Below, piece after piece: positions 21,953 through 27,823 of a DNA stretch of 58,715 nt (positions within the stretch are counted from its first letter, which is position 1; each line of letters opens with the position of its first letter). The notes beneath the pieces were generated by a model. That model was not told the DNA's origin, searched no databases, and saw only the letters and a list, made by a program, of their open reading frames with translations. The stretch is from positions 1 through 58,715 of the forward strand of contig QQVD01000026.1 of the NCBI GenBank assembly GCA_003388555.1. The letters run 5' to 3'. Source of the stretch: Acidobacteriota bacterium (lineage in GTDB: Bacteria > Acidobacteriota > Thermoanaerobaculia > Multivoradales > Multivoraceae). Both the position numbers and the translations under genes were made by a program.

Positions 21953-22195
21953 TCAGCCGCGACCAGCGCCACCGCCGCCGCCCCGACCGGGGCGCCGATC
22001 CTGGTCGGCGGCGCCGATCCTCGCGAGATCCTCCTTCTTGACCTCGATCGCACCGACCACGAGGAAGACCACACACACCGTGACGAAGGCGAAGAGCATC
22101 GGCCCGCCCCACGACGGCAGCACCACCGAGCAGGCGGCGAGCAAGAAGGCGACGGCCGCGACGACGAAGTAGGAGCAGCTCGGCCGCCAGCTCAC
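21953..22195 (-). CDS. Small two-helix membrane protein
   Basis: An 80-residue protein with two hydrophobic helices (about 9-27 and 31-49), then a charged segment and a Gly/Arg-rich end. I do not recognise a family. It is supported as a gene by its GTG start at 22195 with AAGGAG 6 nt upstream, and by its place 57 bp after the SDR gene in the same direction. Confidence 0.65.
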   Translation of the reverse strand: MSWRPSCSYFVVAAVAFLLAACSVVLPSWGGPMLFAFVTVCVVFLVVGAIEVKKEDLARIGAADQDRRPGRGGGGGAGRG

Positions 22196-23157: not shown

Positions 23158-24519
23158 TCAGCGCACGGCGGCGGGGCTGTGCTCCCGGGCGTCCTCGACC
23201 GCCGCCACGATCGGGAACGCCAGGTCGAAGAGGCGACCGCCGAGGCCGAGATACCAGACGAGCGCCAACGAAAGGTGCAGCGGGAAGAACGGCCAGGTCC
23301 AGCGACAACGCGCCGTCAGACGCAGCAGGGCGGCCGCTCCGCACCAGCGGTGCTCCCCGCTCACCGAGGCCGGCACCGCGTCGCCCTGCGCCACGGGCTC
23401 GTCCTCGGACGGCCTACGCAGGGCGGGCGATTCGCCCACCAGCAGTCGCGGCGCCTGCGGATCCGCGGTGACCGTCAACCGAACACTGTCGGCTGGCGCC
23501 AGCCGCGCCAGCGCCGCCACCAGGCCGGGCAGTCGCCGCGCGTCCCCGCGCACCGTCACCTCGAGCCGCGGCACCGCGCCGAGCCAGGCGAGGACCCGCG
23601 CCGTCGTGCGCTCCTCGAGGAAGAGCACGTAGACCAGGCACATGATCAGGCCGAAGGTGAGCAGCCCCATGCCGAAAGCGATGCCCAGGTGCAGCATCAC
23701 ACCGAGGGTCAGGATCCACGGCCGGGTACGGCGGAACCAGACCATGGTCGGGAAGAGCCACTGGAATGCCAGGGTCGTGTACGTACCGATCATCCCCACC
23801 CACGGCCAACGCGTGACGATCTCGTTCATCCACGGATGACTGAACGCATCGGCCTGCAGGATGTAGTAGAGCGCCATGCCGCGCTGCCACAGCTCGCCGT
23901 TGAGCTTGAGCATGCCGGCGGTGAGGTACACGATGACCACCTGCAGCCGCATCAACACCAGACCCGCGTTGGACACAGCGATGCGCAGACGGTCCCAGTC
24001 GGTGCGAGCGATCCGGTGGTGCCCGCTGGTGTCGACCAGGACCAGGTAGAGGAGCAGCAGCTCCGAGAGGTTGTTGCCGCCGTCGAGCAGCGACGGCGCC
24101 ATCGCGTTGACGTTGAGCGTCGCGACGTAGATCAGGAGAGTGACGAGCCGAGAGGTCACTCCGGTCAGCGCGGCGCACAGCAACCCGACCTGGACGACGA
24201 CGAAGACCGTGTAGAAGCCTTCGAAGCCAGGGGCGAGGGAGAGCCTGAACACCCAGTGCACCAGCGACGAGGCGTCGAACGGCTCGCGGATCACCAGCGA
24301 GTCGGGCGCGAAGATCTCCCGGGCGAAGGGCAGCAACAGGAGGGTGTGCAGCAGCAGCCAGGCGAAGAAGAGGTTGCGGAAGAGCCTCTTGGTGGACGGG
24401 GAGCGCTCCGCTTCGGTGAACCAGTCCAGGCCCCGGCGCAGCCGCTCGGTGGCCAGACCCAGATGCGCACCCACGGGCGTTGGCGGTCTCCCTTCCAGCA
24501 GCCGATCGTTCGCGTTCAT
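23158..24519 (-). CDS. HTTM-domain membrane protein (vitamin K carboxylase-like)
   Basis: A 453-residue polytopic membrane protein of the HTTM family, which is related to vitamin K-dependent gamma-glutamyl carboxylase. The core shows several helices, LDGGNNLSELLLLYL (about 145-159) and YLTAGMLKLNGELWQRG (about 198-214). Lys205 in this stretch aligns, from memory, with the catalytic Lys of the carboxylase. The C-terminal part (about 320-430) resembles a DUF393 thiol-disulfide domain without its DxxCxxC motif. It overlaps the DUF5819-like gene by ATGA (24516-24519), so the two are translationally coupled. Reaction unknown. Confidence 0.85.
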   Translation of the reverse strand: MNANDRLLEGRPPTPVGAHLGLATERLRRGLDWFTEAERSPSTKRLFRNLFFAWLLLHTLLLLPFAREIFAPDSLVIREPFDASSLVHWVFRLSLAPGFEGFYTVFVVVQVGLLCAALTGVTSRLVTLLIYVATLNVNAMAPSLLDGGNNLSELLLLYLVLVDTSGHHRIARTDWDRLRIAVSNAGLVLMRLQVVIVYLTAGMLKLNGELWQRGMALYYILQADAFSHPWMNEIVTRWPWVGMIGTYTTLAFQWLFPTMVWFRRTRPWILTLGVMLHLGIAFGMGLLTFGLIMCLVYVLFLEERTTARVLAWLGAVPRLEVTVRGDARRLPGLVAALARLAPADSVRLTVTADPQAPRLLVGESPALRRPSEDEPVAQGDAVPASVSGEHRWCGAAALLRLTARCRWTWPFFPLHLSLALVWYLGLGGRLFDLAFPIVAAVEDAREHSPAAVR

Positions 24520-25310
24520 GGCGCCGCCTCCGCCAGGAGGAGTCCAGCGGCCCTCTCGCCGAGCGAAGCGGTGGAGCTCTCCGCCGGCGCGACCTCGATC
24601 GGCGGCAGCGGCACCTCCATCACCGAGCCCCAGACCGCGCTCTCGTCGTGCCGCTTCGAGAACGGCTTGGGCAGGAAGTCGAGCAGCTTCACCTGAGCCG
24701 CCACGACGCTGTCGCCGCCGTTCGCCCGGCAGGCCCGCACCGCGTAGCGCTGCGCCAGCTCGACCGAGGGCTCGCTCACCAGGAGCGGCACGACGTCACG
24801 GCCCGTGCATTGGGCTGCGCTCTCACCGTCTGTCTCCACCGGCATCTCGCCGCCCTCTGCCTCGGCCCTGGACTGCCTGCAGGATTCCTGCGCAGCGACG
24901 ACGGACTCGCGCAGGTCGGAGCCGATCGAGTGGTAGAACTGCACCAGCTTGCCGTGGCCGAGGACCCGGAACCGATAGTGCTGGCGGTAGAGGTCTTCGA
25001 GCGGATCGGCCCACGGCGTCCATTCGCCGGAGGCGCTGCGGCAGCGCACCGGCAACTTCACCGAATCGAAGGCCGGCATCGGGCTGAACAGGTGCCAGCG
25101 CTGGCGGAAGAAGGGCTCCATGTAGGCAGCCACGACTTCCTGCAGGCTCAGCTTCGCCAGATTCGGCGGCCCGAGGTAGATGGCAGTCATGAGGACGTGC
25201 ACACCGATCAGGATCGCTACCCCGGCGCCGATGCCGCGCGCCAGCGAACATGGGCCCTTGCGGGGCTCGTCGGCGGGAGCCGTCGGTTTCGGATCTCGCC
25301 TCTCTTCCAT
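24516..25310 (-). CDS. DUF5819-like membrane-anchored protein
   Basis: A 264-residue protein with one N-terminal helix (GIGAGVAILIGVHVLMTAIY, about 26-45) and a soluble domain starting with the characteristic RQRWHLFSPMP, as in DUF5819 proteins that accompany HTTM genes. The start at 25310 has AGGAGG 6 nt upstream. The stop overlaps the HTTM start by ATGA. The soluble domain faces outside if the positive-inside rule holds. It is probably a functional partner of the HTTM protein; no enzymatic motif is seen. Confidence 0.75.
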   Translation of the reverse strand: MEERRDPKPTAPADEPRKGPCSLARGIGAGVAILIGVHVLMTAIYLGPPNLAKLSLQEVVAAYMEPFFRQRWHLFSPMPAFDSVKLPVRCRSASGEWTPWADPLEDLYRQHYRFRVLGHGKLVQFYHSIGSDLRESVVAAQESCRQSRAEAEGGEMPVETDGESAAQCTGRDVVPLLVSEPSVELAQRYAVRACRANGGDSVVAAQVKLLDFLPKPFSKRHDESAVWGSVMEVPLPPIEVAPAESSTASLGERAAGLLLAEAAP

Positions 25311-25418
25311 CGCTTTCCTCCTGTGCCATCCGGTGCCGCCTCGGGACTCTTCATGGTCGAGCGGCGGCGGCCGAAAACACGGCTTCCGAGGCCGCGACGG
25401 CCCCGGAAGCCACACTGC

Positions 25419-26009
25419 TCATCGCTCCGCGAGCAGATCGCTGAAGTCGTAGTCGAGATCGCTCGACGACGATCGCAGCTCGGGCGAGCCCGACCCTCCG
25501 AAGCCGTTGACATCGAGCGACTGCACGAAGTCGAGCTCGCTGCTGTTCATGCTGCGCATGACGACCTCCTTGCCACCGGCCAGATTGCCGAGATCCTTGG
25601 CGATGGCGTAGCCGAGGGCCGCTGCGCCGACCAGGGCCGCCACCACCGGAGCGACGCCGAGCACCCTTCCTCCGCTCAGCGCCTGCTCCTTCTCGGAGTA
25701 GGACATCGCCTCCCACATCGAGATCGCCGAGAGCAGCCCCGGTTCGGCGCCCTTCGCCCGGGCGTTCTTCATCGCCTGGTCGAAGGCACCGACGACCTCC
25801 TGCTTCTGCTCGGTCGACAGCCCGGGCGCGAACTGCGGAACGCGATTCTTGGGCATCTCCTTGAGCGTGCGCTTGAGATCACTGGTGACGAAGCGTTCGT
25901 ACTTGCCTCCCTGCGCGATCGCCTCGGGCAGTACGGCCGAGCCGACGAGCAGAGCGACGAGGAGGGCGAATGACACCCGCCTCGACACGCTGGATGTCTC
26001 GCTCTTCAT
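25419..26009 (-). CDS. Exported protein, tandem family member 1
   Basis: A 196-residue unrecognised protein, one of four tandem paralogs (to 27823). It has a signal peptide ending AIAQG, a helical region with FAPGLSTEQKQ and WEAMSYSEKEQAL, a glycine-rich hydrophobic segment (VLGVAPVVAALVGAAALGYA) and a polar C-terminus with RSMNSSELDF and LDYDF. The last two motifs, in varied form, occur in all four copies. It is translationally coupled to the previous copy (its start at 26009 overlaps the 26006 stop). Function unknown. Confidence 0.8.
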   Translation of the reverse strand: MKSETSSVSRRVSFALLVALLVGSAVLPEAIAQGGKYERFVTSDLKRTLKEMPKNRVPQFAPGLSTEQKQEVVGAFDQAMKNARAKGAEPGLLSAISMWEAMSYSEKEQALSGGRVLGVAPVVAALVGAAALGYAIAKDLGNLAGGKEVVMRSMNSSELDFVQSLDVNGFGGSGSPELRSSSSDLDYDFSDLLAER

Positions 26010-26539
26010 CGCGACACCACGGCGTAGTCGAGTGCCACCTCGTCGAGATCGAGGCTGGACCTCATGTCGGGTCCACTCAGGGCATCGAGCTCAGCAGCGC
26101 TCATCGCCCGCATCTGAAGCTCTTCCTTGCCACCGGCCTTCGCCTGGGCAACTCCTACCGCCGCGCCGACGGCCATGCCGGCCGCCATGGCGAGCACTAC
26201 ACCGGCCGCGATCGCAAAGGTGCCCATCGCGGTCTCACCAGACAGCGCCCGCAGCTTGTCGTCCTGGCTCATGCTCTCCCAGATCGTCACCGCCTCCGCC
26301 ATGGCGCCCGACGGGCGTTTGCTCTTCACTGCACGATCGATCTCGGCGATCGTCGCCAGCTTCTGTTCCTGGGTCAGTCCGGGCTTGAAGACCGGGACCT
26401 GACGCGGCGACTTGCGGAGCTCGGCCTTGAGCTCGGAGCTCATCACGCCGCGTCCGCGCTGCGCCGACACCGACTGCATCGTCAGCGTCGACAGGAGGGC
26501 TGCCGCGACGAACGCGGCGAACGGCCTCTTCCAGTGCAT
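26006..26539 (-). CDS. Exported protein, tandem family member 2
   Basis: A 177-residue paralog of the neighbouring genes: signal peptide ending SVSAQ, the block VPVFKPGLTQEQK, WESMSQDDKLRALSG, a Gly/Ala-rich hydrophobic segment of about 25 residues, then MRAMSAAELDAL and LDYAVVSR at the end. The start at 26539 is supported by a GGAGGAG site 5 nt upstream; the longer frame to 26629 has no such support. A 176-bp gap separates it from copy 3, the largest in the set. Confidence 0.8.
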   Translation of the reverse strand: MHWKRPFAAFVAAALLSTLTMQSVSAQRGRGVMSSELKAELRKSPRQVPVFKPGLTQEQKLATIAEIDRAVKSKRPSGAMAEAVTIWESMSQDDKLRALSGETAMGTFAIAAGVVLAMAAGMAVGAAVGVAQAKAGGKEELQMRAMSAAELDALSGPDMRSSLDLDEVALDYAVVSR

Positions 26540-26715
26540 CTGTTCTCCTCCAGTGGGCACTTCAGTTGGTTTGGGATGGAATCGCGCGTCACCGGTGCCC
26601 ATCGGCGACCGCGGACCGTTCTCCACCATCCCTCAGGGGAACTGCGGAGCCCGATCGCCAAGGAGTACGGCATCGATGGCGCCGAATCGGTCACGCATCG
26701 TCACGGCCCGCGGGC

Positions 26716-27249
26716 TCAGGGGGCGAAGTAGTCGAGATCCGGGGGCCCGACGACCTCCGACCTCGCCGCGGCCAGGCCACCACCGAAGTCGTCGGACTTG
26801 AGCTGATCGATCGCATCGAGCTCCTCGCCGTTCAGCCGTCGCTGCCGGAACTCCGAGCCGAGGGCGTCGCGGGTGCCGGTGACGACCGCCCCCGCCAGCA
26901 CCGCGACGTAGACCACCGCCGGAGCGATGCCGGCGACCCGTCCGGTGGTCAGCAGCTGCTCCTTCTCCGCCGGCCGCAGCGACTGCCAGAGGCGCACCGA
27001 GTCGGCGAGGCCCGGCGTCGGGCGGGCCTGCGCGAAGGCCTGGTCGATGCGGGACACCTGCTCCTGCTTCGCTGCGCGGCTGAGTCCGGCCTTGAGCTGC
27101 GGCGCCATCTTCCCGGACAGCTTCGGCAGCTCGGCGCGCAGGGCAGGAGTCAGGAACCTCGCCGCTCGCCCCTCTCCCTGAGAAGACGCCTCTTGCAGGG
27201 TTGCGAGCAACGCCGTGATCGCGATCAAGAAAACCAGTCCGCTTCGCAT
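26716..27249 (-). CDS. Exported protein, tandem family member 3
   Basis: A 177-residue paralog closest to copy 4. Both share SSQGEGR at the signal-peptide boundary, RFLTPALRAEL, GLADSVRLWQSL and EKEQLLT.GRV.GIAPA. After the hydrophobic segment come QRRLNGEELDAIDQL and a C-terminal LDYFAP. The start at 27249 has ggagg 6 nt upstream; the open frame to 27297 is not needed. Function unknown. Confidence 0.8.
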   Translation of the reverse strand: MRSGLVFLIAITALLATLQEASSQGEGRAARFLTPALRAELPKLSGKMAPQLKAGLSRAAKQEQVSRIDQAFAQARPTPGLADSVRLWQSLRPAEKEQLLTTGRVAGIAPAVVYVAVLAGAVVTGTRDALGSEFRQRRLNGEELDAIDQLKSDDFGGGLAAARSEVVGPPDLDYFAP

Positions 27250-27283
27250 CCTTTTCCTCCCTCGTTCCTGTTCTCGCTTTCGT

Positions 27284-27823
27284 TCAGGGTGCCGCATAGT
27301 CGAGCTCGGCCGAGTCGACGCTCTCGAGCACAGCGCGCCCAGATCCGTAGGCGAAGCCGCTGGTGCGTCCCAGTCGATCGATGGTGTCGAGCTCCTCGGC
27401 GTCTAGTGGGCGCTGCAGGAAGTCCTTCGACCCGACCGAATCGTCGTAGTCCACTGCGACGGCCAACGCGACAGCGACTGCCACCACCGCTGCCGGAGCG
27501 ATCCCTCTGACTCGCCCGTTGGTCAGCAGCTGCTCCTTCTCGACCACGCTGAGCGACTGCCAGAGCCGAACCGAGTCGGCCAGGCCGGGGGGCGTGTGGA
27601 CCCCGGCGAGGGCCTGGTCGATCCGGGCGACATGCTCTCGCTTTGCCTGGCGATCGACGCCTGGAACGAACTGCGGTGCGCGCTTGCCAGGCATCTTGGT
27701 CAGCTCCGCTCGCAGGGCCGGGGTCAGAAACCTGTCCGTCCGACCCTCACCCTGCGACGACGCCTGATCGATGGCGGCGAGGAGCGTCACCAGACTGACC
27801 AGCAAAGAGACTCGATAGCGCAT
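27284..27823 (-). CDS. Exported protein, tandem family member 4 (first in order)
   Basis: A 179-residue paralog and probably the promoter-proximal gene of the six-gene minus-strand run down to 23158. Signal peptide ending QASSQ, then the same GEGR, RFLTPALRAEL, GLADSVRLWQSL and GIAPA blocks as copy 3, a Val/Ala-rich hydrophobic segment, QRPLDAEELDTIDRL and a C-terminal LDYAAP. Start 27823 with a GGAGGAGAAGG ribosome site. It is 34 bp from copy 3 and divergent from the AlkC-like gene. Confidence 0.8.
   Translation of the reverse strand: MRYRVSLLVSLVTLLAAIDQASSQGEGRTDRFLTPALRAELTKMPGKRAPQFVPGVDRQAKREHVARIDQALAGVHTPPGLADSVRLWQSLSVVEKEQLLTNGRVRGIAPAAVVAVAVALAVAVDYDDSVGSKDFLQRPLDAEELDTIDRLGRTSGFAYGSGRAVLESVDSAELDYAAP

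What the first reader, a model, noticed from the sequence alone, without database searches (positions are those of the whole stretch)
23158..27823. Four tandem exported paralogs next to an HTTM/DUF5819 pair: candidate undescribed modification system
Four consecutive genes encode small exported proteins with shared order: signal peptide ending with SQ/AQ, a PGL....K block, W-E/Q-S/A-M/L..EK block, a hydrophobic segment, then an E-L-D motif and a C-terminal L-D-Y. They run into DUF5819-like and HTTM genes with overlapping codons. HTTM is related to vitamin K-dependent Glu carboxylase, and Lys205 sits where I recall the carboxylase base. A substrate family plus a modifying enzyme is a natural but untested reading.
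Basis: partly seen in the sequence, partly recalled or inferred. Interest (0 to 1): 0.68.

Follow-up and report, generated by a model that had tools for sequence, protein, structure and literature searches.

The report
SDP-like secreted peptide maturation operon
Four neighbouring genes make small secreted precursor proteins that sit with two membrane-protein genes resembling the machinery Bacillus uses to mature a membrane-killing peptide, and a similar arrangement, with a shared tail motif on the precursors, turns up in several distant bacterial groups.

Summary
In detail: four tandem exported paralogs (56, 36 and 28% identical to paralog B) precede a DUF5819 and an HTTM gene on the minus strand, 23158-27823. 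The HTTM protein is an SdpB relative (hhalign 99.8%) with the GGCX fold; Lys205 aligns with the GGCX base Lys218, but the GGCX Glu-pocket triplet N158-N159-H160 becomes Asp-Gly-Gly. DUF5819 is, more weakly, an SdpA relative. The closest analogue is sdpABC (toxin precursor plus two maturation proteins), not vitamin-K carboxylation. In 52 of 53 loci fetched with HTTM (seeded from DUF5819-linked HTTMs), DUF5819 lies directly upstream; in 43 of those 52 an ORF upstream of DUF5819 ends in [FL]D or [FL]DX (17 of 3544 other ORFs do), and 37 of the 43 pass a signal-peptide heuristic. The window's near-terminal LDY looks like its version. Window, two Myxococcota MAGs and a Pseudobacteriovorax MAG form one HTTM clade; the window and both Myxococcota carry the paralog domain, Pseudobacteriovorax a short exported protein ending DLDY. 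Best reading: an undescribed branch of SDP-like secreted-peptide systems, here with four precursors. Not shown: toxicity, processing, chemistry; no immunity gene found.

The parts
27284..27823 (-). precursor A, 179 aa, signal peptide ending ASSQ
26716..27249 (-). precursor B, 177 aa (in-frame upstream ATG at 27297 possible)
26006..26539 (-). precursor C, 177 aa (in-frame upstream ATG at 26629 possible); stop overlaps start of D by 4 nt
25419..26009 (-). precursor D, 196 aa
24516..25310 (-). DUF5819 (PF19136) protein, 264 aa (in-frame upstream GTG at 25415 possible), N-terminal hydrophobic segment, W..F.P.P motif; SdpA-like by profile comparison
23158..24519 (-). HTTM / SdpB-like membrane protein, 453 aa, GGCX fold; start overlaps DUF5819 stop by 4 nt
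23905..23907 (-). codon of HTTM Lys205, aligned with GGCX Lys218
24076..24084 (-). codons of HTTM Asp146-Gly147-Gly148, aligned with GGCX Asn158-Asn159-His160
23161..23568 (-). C-terminal degenerate DCC1/thioredoxin-like domain of HTTM, no CxxC
27296..27304 (-). near-terminal LDY motif of A
26728..26736 (-). near-terminal LDY motif of B
26024..26032 (-). near-terminal LDY motif of C
25449..25457 (-). near-terminal LDY motif of D
27449..27505 (-). most hydrophobic 19 residues of A beyond residue 40 (candidate mature-peptide core)
26881..26937 (-). most hydrophobic 19 residues of B beyond residue 40
26156..26212 (-). most hydrophobic 19 residues of C beyond residue 40
25599..25655 (-). most hydrophobic 19 residues of D beyond residue 40

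Best explanation
This is an SDP-like secreted-peptide system. The four paralogs are precursors exported by Sec. Their conserved front block (P.F...K, W-E/Q-S...K) would act as a pro-region, the Ala/Gly/Val-rich hydrophobic stretch would be the core of the mature membrane-active peptide, and the E-L-D/L-D-Y tail would be the tag by which the maturation pair recognises its substrate. DUF5819 (SdpA-like, membrane-anchored) and HTTM (SdpB-like, GGCX fold, with a dead DCC1-type domain) would form the membrane complex that matures the precursors outside the inner membrane, probably with a quinone-coupled base reaction at Lys205 on a substrate other than a Gla-type Glu. Shown by sequence: paralogy, HTTM-SdpB and HTTM-GGCX homology, conserved DUF5819-HTTM pairing, precursor-like genes upstream of the pair in other bacteria, the shared tail motif. 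Supported but weaker: DUF5819-SdpA homology. Inferred: export route, processing, tag function, quinone chemistry, membrane toxicity.
For: HTTM: NCBIfam export_SdpB 1.1e-16, hhalign to six SdpB 99.8%, E 1.8e-27. DUF5819 against six SdpA: score 36.2, nearly end to end, versus a maximum of 16.7 in 100 column shuffles. Gene order precursor-DUF5819-HTTM mirrors sdpC-sdpA-sdpB in Tsukamurella and S. virginiae (Niallia has sdpA-sdpB-sdpC instead). DUF5819 directly upstream of HTTM in 52 of 53 loci fetched with an HTTM alignment, and HTTM downstream in 19 of 19 further stretches fetched with DUF5819 only. In the three genomes that hold the paralog domain it occurs only at this pair: 4 hits in the window's genome, 6 in that of L023, 1 in that of L025. 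Upstream ORFs ending [FL]D or [FL]DX: 48 of 321 versus 17 of 3544 elsewhere; 43 of 52 loci; 14 of 20 genus-level groups versus 0.5 expected. Window, L023, L024 and L025 HTTMs form one clade, 100/100. SDP itself is an internal hydrophobic 42-residue piece of an exported 203-aa SdpC and needs SdpA and SdpB (PMC6818787, passages).
Against: No precursor tested matches the NCBIfam SdpC model, which does recognise three annotated SdpC used as a control. The window's DUF5819 has no hit to the SdpA models and HTTM reaches 61 of the 178 bits of the SdpB cut-off (control SdpB 245 bits). No immunity gene was recognised, though not every neighbour was scanned. The first DUF5819-SdpA comparison, with two SdpA, gave 0.9%, E 0.06; the later ones 28 and 65%. 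The seeds of the 53-locus scan were HTTMs already known to lie beside DUF5819, so 52 of 53 overstates the link for HTTMs at large; other HTTMs (own genome, Hymenobacter, linaridin clusters) show no DUF5819. Nine of 52 loci, 14 of 19 Polyangia-class stretches and 3 of 6 opened plasmid loci lack the tail motif, and four actinobacterial loci have proteins with LPxTG-like tails there instead. L023 proteins are three-domain and lipoprotein-like, odd for a toxin precursor. The L024 precursor is not detected by the paralog profiles. The tree call warns of long branches meeting near the window's clade.
Confidence: 0.62

Rival explanations
1. The pair is a maturation or anchoring system for non-toxic exported proteins (surface structure, signalling peptides or adhesion); the four paralogs are such cargo and no killing is involved.
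For: Some DUF5819-HTTM pairs sit beside proteins with LPxTG-like tails (L018; L066, L068, L070); L023 precursors are lipoprotein-like with three domain copies; no immunity gene recognised.
Against: Of 43 loci with the tail motif, 37 have it on a short protein passing a signal-peptide heuristic, many with an Ala/Gly-rich stretch like bacteriocin precursors; HTTM is close to SdpB; patchy distribution, DUF5819 in 1 of 396 genomes of the phylum, fits competition systems (inference).
Confidence: 0.23
2. HTTM is a vitamin K type carboxylase making gamma-carboxyglutamate (or beta-carboxyaspartate) in the ELD/LDY region of the four proteins.
For: GGCX fold (Foldseek E 3.1e-6, prob 1.00) and base Lys205 = Lys218; an acidic residue sits three before the [FL]D pair in 71% of tails, 50% with one tail per genus; L024 (EEPELEFEEEDLDY) and L025 precursors have acid-rich tails.
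Against: Glu-site residues N158-N159-H160 become Asp-Gly-Gly in 24 of 27 aligned HTTMs and 6 of 6 SdpB; at most 2-4 Glu per 20 residues in the four window precursors; the part after the TM domain looks like a dead DCC1 domain, with no propeptide-binding domain recognised.
Confidence: 0.1
3. Chance neighbours: four paralogs of unrelated function beside an HTTM pair.
For: Only the window's genome among 396 of its phylum has the paralogs at E <= 1e-4.
Against: Homologs beside the same pair in two other genomes and motif-bearing ORFs there in 43 of 52 loci.
Confidence: 0.02

Closest known systems
sdpABC (sporulation-delaying protein) of Bacillus subtilis and its paralog yitPOM
   Same: Exported precursor with hydrophobic core plus SdpA-like and SdpB-like proteins, same gene order in two plasmid-borne actinobacterial sets, strong SdpB homology
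   Different: Precursors do not match the SdpC model and carry a tail motif; SdpA relation only by profile; no SdpI-type gene recognised; HTTM carries a DCC1-type domain; four precursors in tandem; Gram-negative clade
Vitamin K-dependent gamma-carboxylase (GGCX)
   Same: TM fold; Lys205 = Lys218; Phe289 aligns with F299, one of three Phe mutated together as a vitamin K site
   Different: Glu-site N158-N159-H160 replaced by Asp-Gly-Gly; no propeptide-binding domain recognised; window substrates not Glu-clustered
HTTM proteins of linaridin clusters (corynaridin CrdG)
   Same: HTTM protein encoded with a ribosomal peptide precursor and assumed to take part in its maturation (PMC9927463, one passage)
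   Different: Other partner genes in the passage (alpha/beta hydrolase, SDR); DUF5819 not mentioned there
DCC1-like thiol-disulfide oxidoreductase (PF04134)
   Same: Fused to or beside HTTM in Virgibacillus, Streptomyces, Macrococcus, Pseudobacteriovorax and Caldilineaceae loci; window C-terminal domain aligns at 95.2%, E 2.6e-8
   Different: Window, L023 and L025 versions lack the CxxC pair (sequences); no Pfam hit for the window domain alone

Membership tests
SdpABC (SDP) systems | SdpB protein passing NCBIfam TIGR04033 | tested here: not met
   61.2 bits, cut-off 178.4, E 1.1e-16; control SdpB 245.5 bits; homologous, not a member
SdpABC (SDP) systems | SdpA protein passing TIGR04034 / PF17418 | tested here: not met
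   No hit; both models recognise a control SdpA; remote homology by hhalign, score 36.2 vs max 16.7 in 100 shuffles
SdpABC (SDP) systems | SdpC-family precursor (TIGR04032) | tested here: not met
   No match for the four paralogs or the other precursors tested; three control SdpC pass the cut-off
SdpABC (SDP) systems | Exported precursor with internal hydrophobic core | tested here: met
   Hydrophobic 19-residue windows with mean KD 2.1-2.4 beyond residue 40 in all four; signal peptides judged by eye and heuristic only
SdpABC (SDP) systems | Immunity gene (SdpI type) nearby | tested here: inconclusive
   None among the neighbours scanned with Pfam, PADLOC or NCBIfam; not every neighbour was scanned, and an annotated SdpI control gave no NCBIfam hit either
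SdpABC (SDP) systems | Processing of precursor to a killing peptide dependent on A and B proteins | not testable with these tools
   needs expression and mass spectrometry
Vitamin K-dependent carboxylase | TM fold and base lysine (Lys218) | tested here: met
Vitamin K-dependent carboxylase | Glu-binding N159 and H160 | tested here: not met
   Gly-Gly in the window at these columns
Vitamin K-dependent carboxylase | Glu-rich (Gla) substrate | tested here: not met
   2-4 Glu at most per 20 residues in the four; relatives L024 and L025 are acid-rich at the tail
PF19136 DUF5819 | Pfam gathering score | tested here: met
   44.2 bits, cut-off 27.1
PF05090 HTTM | Pfam gathering score | tested here: met
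   29.7 bits, cut-off 27.7
BLB8/JUQZ-1 bacteriocins (NF053514) | NCBIfam cut-off 40 bits | tested here: not met
   No hit for the four window paralogs; best elsewhere 14.9 bits over residues 1-49 in Macrococcus

The most novel reading that the evidence does not exclude
DUF5819-HTTM pairs define a widespread, undescribed class of extracytoplasmic peptide maturation in at least five named phyla (Actinomycetota, Bacillota, Chloroflexota, Bdellovibrionota, Myxococcota) plus the window's, in which a quinone-driven carboxylase-fold enzyme, stripped of its Glu pocket, carries out a different base-started reaction on exported precursors recognised by a C-terminal [DE]xx[FL]D tag, releasing membrane-active peptides; the window's clade brings it into Gram-negatives with multi-copy precursors.
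Probability: 0.3. Interest if true: 0.82.

Novelty: new variant of a known kind. Interest (0 to 1): 0.63.

Why it matters
What SdpB/HTTM proteins do to their precursors is unknown to my knowledge (recalled), although SDP is well studied. A second, broader precursor class with a short shared tail gives a direct handle on the recognition signal, links DUF5819 to SdpA, and points to a set of unannotated candidate antimicrobial peptides in Streptomyces, Bacillota, Chloroflexota and Gram-negatives such as Polyangia and Pseudobacteriovorax.

Tried and rejected
JUQZ-1/BLB8 bacteriocin family: the Macrococcus precursor gave 14.9 bits over its first 49 residues, which include the signal peptide; four other precursors and ten proteins gave no hit to it, and in the genome search 11 of 14 control genomes also ring at E <= 1 with none over the cut-off; rejected as a link. 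Sequence and fold searches of the paralogs against the PDB gave nothing significant (the model has pLDDT 66, so a missing match says little). DUF5819 against the PDB: nothing significant. Paralog D in plasmids and paralog B and HTTM in viral contigs: none. DUF5819 single-protein scan of genome contigs: none confirmed. A weak hit in G300 (E 3.3e-4, profile positions 10-60) was dropped as probable signal-peptide similarity; one search does not list it, but used a stricter limit (1e-4). Anti-phage defence models: none. dN/dS among the paralogs is near saturation and was not used.
Full report
OBSERVATION. The minus strand of 23158-27823 holds six genes in one direction: four paralogs A-D, a DUF5819 protein and an HTTM protein. 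The four share signal peptide, a P.(F/L)..G(L/V)....K block, W-(E/Q)-(S/A)-(M/L)...K, a hydrophobic stretch, E-L-D and L-D-Y. A search of the genome with B finds all four and no fifth place at E <= 1. Coding periodicity (GC3 0.79-0.91) and ribosome-binding-like sites before A, B, C and DUF5819 support them as genes; C/D and DUF5819/HTTM overlap by 4 nt. The starts of B and C nearest such a site are used here; longer in-frame starts exist. The paralogs have no significant Pfam, NCBIfam or PADLOC family.

DISTRIBUTION OF THE PARALOGS. Protein B finds nothing in 40 relatives. The four-row profile finds nothing in the other 147 genomes of the class, nor in the other 395 drawn from the phylum apart from one weak hit (G300, 3.3e-4); the 11-row profile at E <= 1e-4 finds only the window's genome. 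DUF5819 is in 1 of 396 genomes of that phylum. The cassette is thus rare in the window's own lineage, which suggests horizontal gain.

RELATIVES OF THE PAIR. A scan of genome contigs with a four-row HTTM alignment, whose rows all came from DUF5819-linked HTTMs, gave 53 loci. The three closest are Gram-negative: a Polyangia MAG (L023, 46% in the best segment), a 'Deltaproteobacteria' MAG of Myxococcota (L025, 43%) and a Pseudobacteriovorax MAG (L024, 41%). A profile of DUF5819 finds it upstream on the same strand in 52 of 53; the exception, L075, has a broken HTTM frame. In reverse, a DUF5819 search over 289 genomes of the class of the L023 genome found 18 genomes with a match, 10 of them over the curated cut-off. 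From the 21 places listed I took 19, leaving out those of L023 and L025 already held; all 19 have HTTM downstream. Five of the 19 (L131-L133, L136, L137) belong to a divergent doublet with weak DUF5819 scores. HTTMs at large are not tied to DUF5819: the strong HTTM elsewhere in the window's genome and that of Hymenobacter have none annotated or found beside them. A maximum-likelihood tree of 65 HTTM/SdpB proteins puts WINDOW, L023, L024 and L025 in one clade with 100/100 support; the tool warns of long branches meeting there.

PRECURSORS ELSEWHERE. Upstream of DUF5819, L023 has two proteins of 470 and 476 aa, each with three copies of the paralog domain (domain E-values 2.4e-14 to 9.9e-18); L025 has one protein of 206 aa (8.3e-10). 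L024 has one of 138 aa that ends EEDLDY and has an IWQSM...ER block but is not found by the profile (0.29). The best of 1000 shuffled sequences gave 0.05. In the L023 and L025 genomes the domain occurs nowhere else (6 and 1 hits, all at the locus). In an 11-row domain alignment P58, W99, L111 and D160 of paralog D are invariant, and the ELD of the window aligns with the repeated (D/E)LDY of L023. L024 and L025 tails are acid-rich.

THE TAIL MOTIF. Reading candidates upstream of DUF5819, I saw that many are proteins of about 90-130 aa with a signal peptide, an Ala/Gly-rich stretch and a C-terminus such as VFDK, AYFDR or AFDY. I then counted, so the motif was chosen after seeing part of the data. 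ORFs of 50 aa or more ending [FL]D or [FL]DX: 48 of 321 upstream versus 17 of 3544 others; 43 of 52 loci; 14 of 20 genus-level groups versus 0.5 expected (binomial 1.6e-18); one of the 14 (Rhizohabitans) looks like chance. Of the 43 loci, 37 show the tail on a candidate of the signal-peptide heuristic (L024 as well, but by an internal start; L040, L047, L069, L071, L073 do not). An acidic residue lies three before [FL]D in 71% of the tails, 50% with one tail per genus. With a narrower last-residue set the count was 46 of 321 versus 12 of 3544 and 42 of 52 loci. Loci without it: L023 and L025 (paralog-type precursors), L038, L057, L060 (nothing obvious), and L065, L066, L068, L070, of which L066, L068 and L070 show LPxTG-like tails on neighbouring proteins. 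On plasmids, 10 of 20 HTTM records were opened and two more; six have DUF5819, three of them with FD tails (L013, L014, L016) and three without (L017, L018, L019). A separate set, the 19 stretches fetched by DUF5819, gives 7 of 122 upstream versus 6 of 1314 other ORFs of 40 aa or more, in 5 of 19 loci: same direction, weaker. The window's LDY lies 3-9 residues before the end, so it is a variant of the motif by analogy, not a match to the counted pattern.

WHAT THE PAIR IS. HTTM: NCBIfam export_SdpB 1.1e-16 but below its cut-off; hhalign to six SdpB 99.8%, E 1.8e-27. A profile search of the PDB finds only GGCX at E <= 10 (best 5.6e-11); the predicted model (pLDDT 83) matches GGCX by Foldseek at 3.1e-6, prob 1.00. 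From the printed alignment, with an offset of 31 between chain and full-length numbering (83-299 versus 114-330 in the same table), Lys205 falls on Lys218 and Asp146-Gly147-Gly148 on Asn158-Asn159-His160. In GGCX, Lys218 deprotonates vitamin K hydroquinone, while N159, H160 and Y395 hold the Glu side chain (PMC12589487, passages). Lys205 is invariant in 10 of 10 HTTM/SdpB proteins aligned without selecting for it; in the 27-row alignment (the window and 26 of 51 locus proteins given) the locus rows had been picked by a pattern that contains the Lys, and one of 52 loci (L070) failed that pattern. Asp-Gly-Gly is complete in 24 of those 27 and in 7 of the 10. So the base is kept and the Glu pocket is not. 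The C-terminal part of the window's HTTM, aligned with L023 and L025, matches DCC1-type domains (95.2%, E 2.6e-8; score 52.3, 60 shuffles at most 16.8) without the cysteine pair.

DUF5819 AND SdpA. The first comparison, with two SdpA sequences, gave 0.9%. With six, it gave 27.7% and 65.4% (E 6.5e-4 and 5.9e-5), aligned from the TM segment through W..F..P to a C-terminal P(W/F)S.R / PWAWR stretch. The score of 36.2 exceeds all 100 column shuffles (maximum 16.7), the reversed profile (13.9) and four unrelated alignments (12.4-17.4). I read DUF5819 as an SdpA-like protein; the curated SdpA models do not recognise it.

MECHANISM. SDP is an internal hydrophobic 42-residue peptide of exported SdpC and needs SdpA and SdpB; SdpC groups differ in the hydrophobic domain (PMC6818787, passages). 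HTTM proteins are also assumed to help mature linaridins (PMC9927463, one passage). By this analogy the paralogs are precursors, the hydrophobic stretch is the active core and the tail is the recognition tag. In the window the pro-region is the most alike part (mean pairwise identity 0.41) and the hydrophobic part less (0.32), a modest difference. Toxicity, processing and chemistry are inferred. No immunity gene was recognised among the neighbours scanned.

LITERATURE. DUF5819: 0 papers. Of 13 papers with at least three of SdpA, SdpB, SdpC and HTTM, none held HTTM. 'HTTM domain/family/protein': 2 papers. Transport-protein genomics had placed a Streptomyces coelicolor protein in the SdpAB family and a Myxococcus xanthus protein in the SdpC family (PMC3924187, passages). 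The JUQZ-1 paper (PMC11747845) and a Brevibacterium genome paper (PMC5719810) were seen in passages. These searches cover only the open PMC library.

VERDICT. Real, conserved, and best explained as a new variant of SDP-like secreted-peptide systems; not a member of sdpABC by curated models, and not a carboxylation system on present evidence.

Noticed in passing
L018, L066, L068, L070 beside DUF5819-HTTM: A side branch of DUF5819-HTTM pairs lies beside Ala/Asn- or Asp-rich proteins with LPxTG-like tails, suggesting another substrate class.
   Followed up: partly
L131, L132, L133, L136, L137 (genomes of 11-13 Mb in the class of the L023 genome): Doublets of weak DUF5819-like and HTTM-like genes in a row, in four of the five with an upstream HTTM-bearing frame of about 850 aa; possibly another SdpAB-like branch.
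   Followed up: no
L023:8761-9657 and 994-1941: A second HTTM-like membrane protein near the precursor cassette of the Polyangia MAG, and a PrsW-like membrane protease upstream; both named by eye.
   Followed up: no
window 21953-22195 (-): Small membrane protein downstream of the SDR gene, weak Pfam hit to a membrane toxin family (PF07254, E 0.002, below cut-off), no NCBIfam or PADLOC hit; an untested immunity candidate or ordinary gene.
   Followed up: partly
L078 (Niallia plasmid) 2059-2490: A DUF393 (DCC1-type) gene directly before sdpA-sdpB-sdpC, so a thiol-oxidoreductase partner occurs with both kinds of system.
   Followed up: no
own genome C23:32314-33075 (L001): A second, much stronger HTTM (212 bits) in the same genome; the only DUF5819 of the genome is at the window.
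   Followed up: no
L013:2003-2861: Virgibacillus plasmid carries two nearly identical tandem precursors before DUF5819, another case of precursor multiplication.
   Followed up: no
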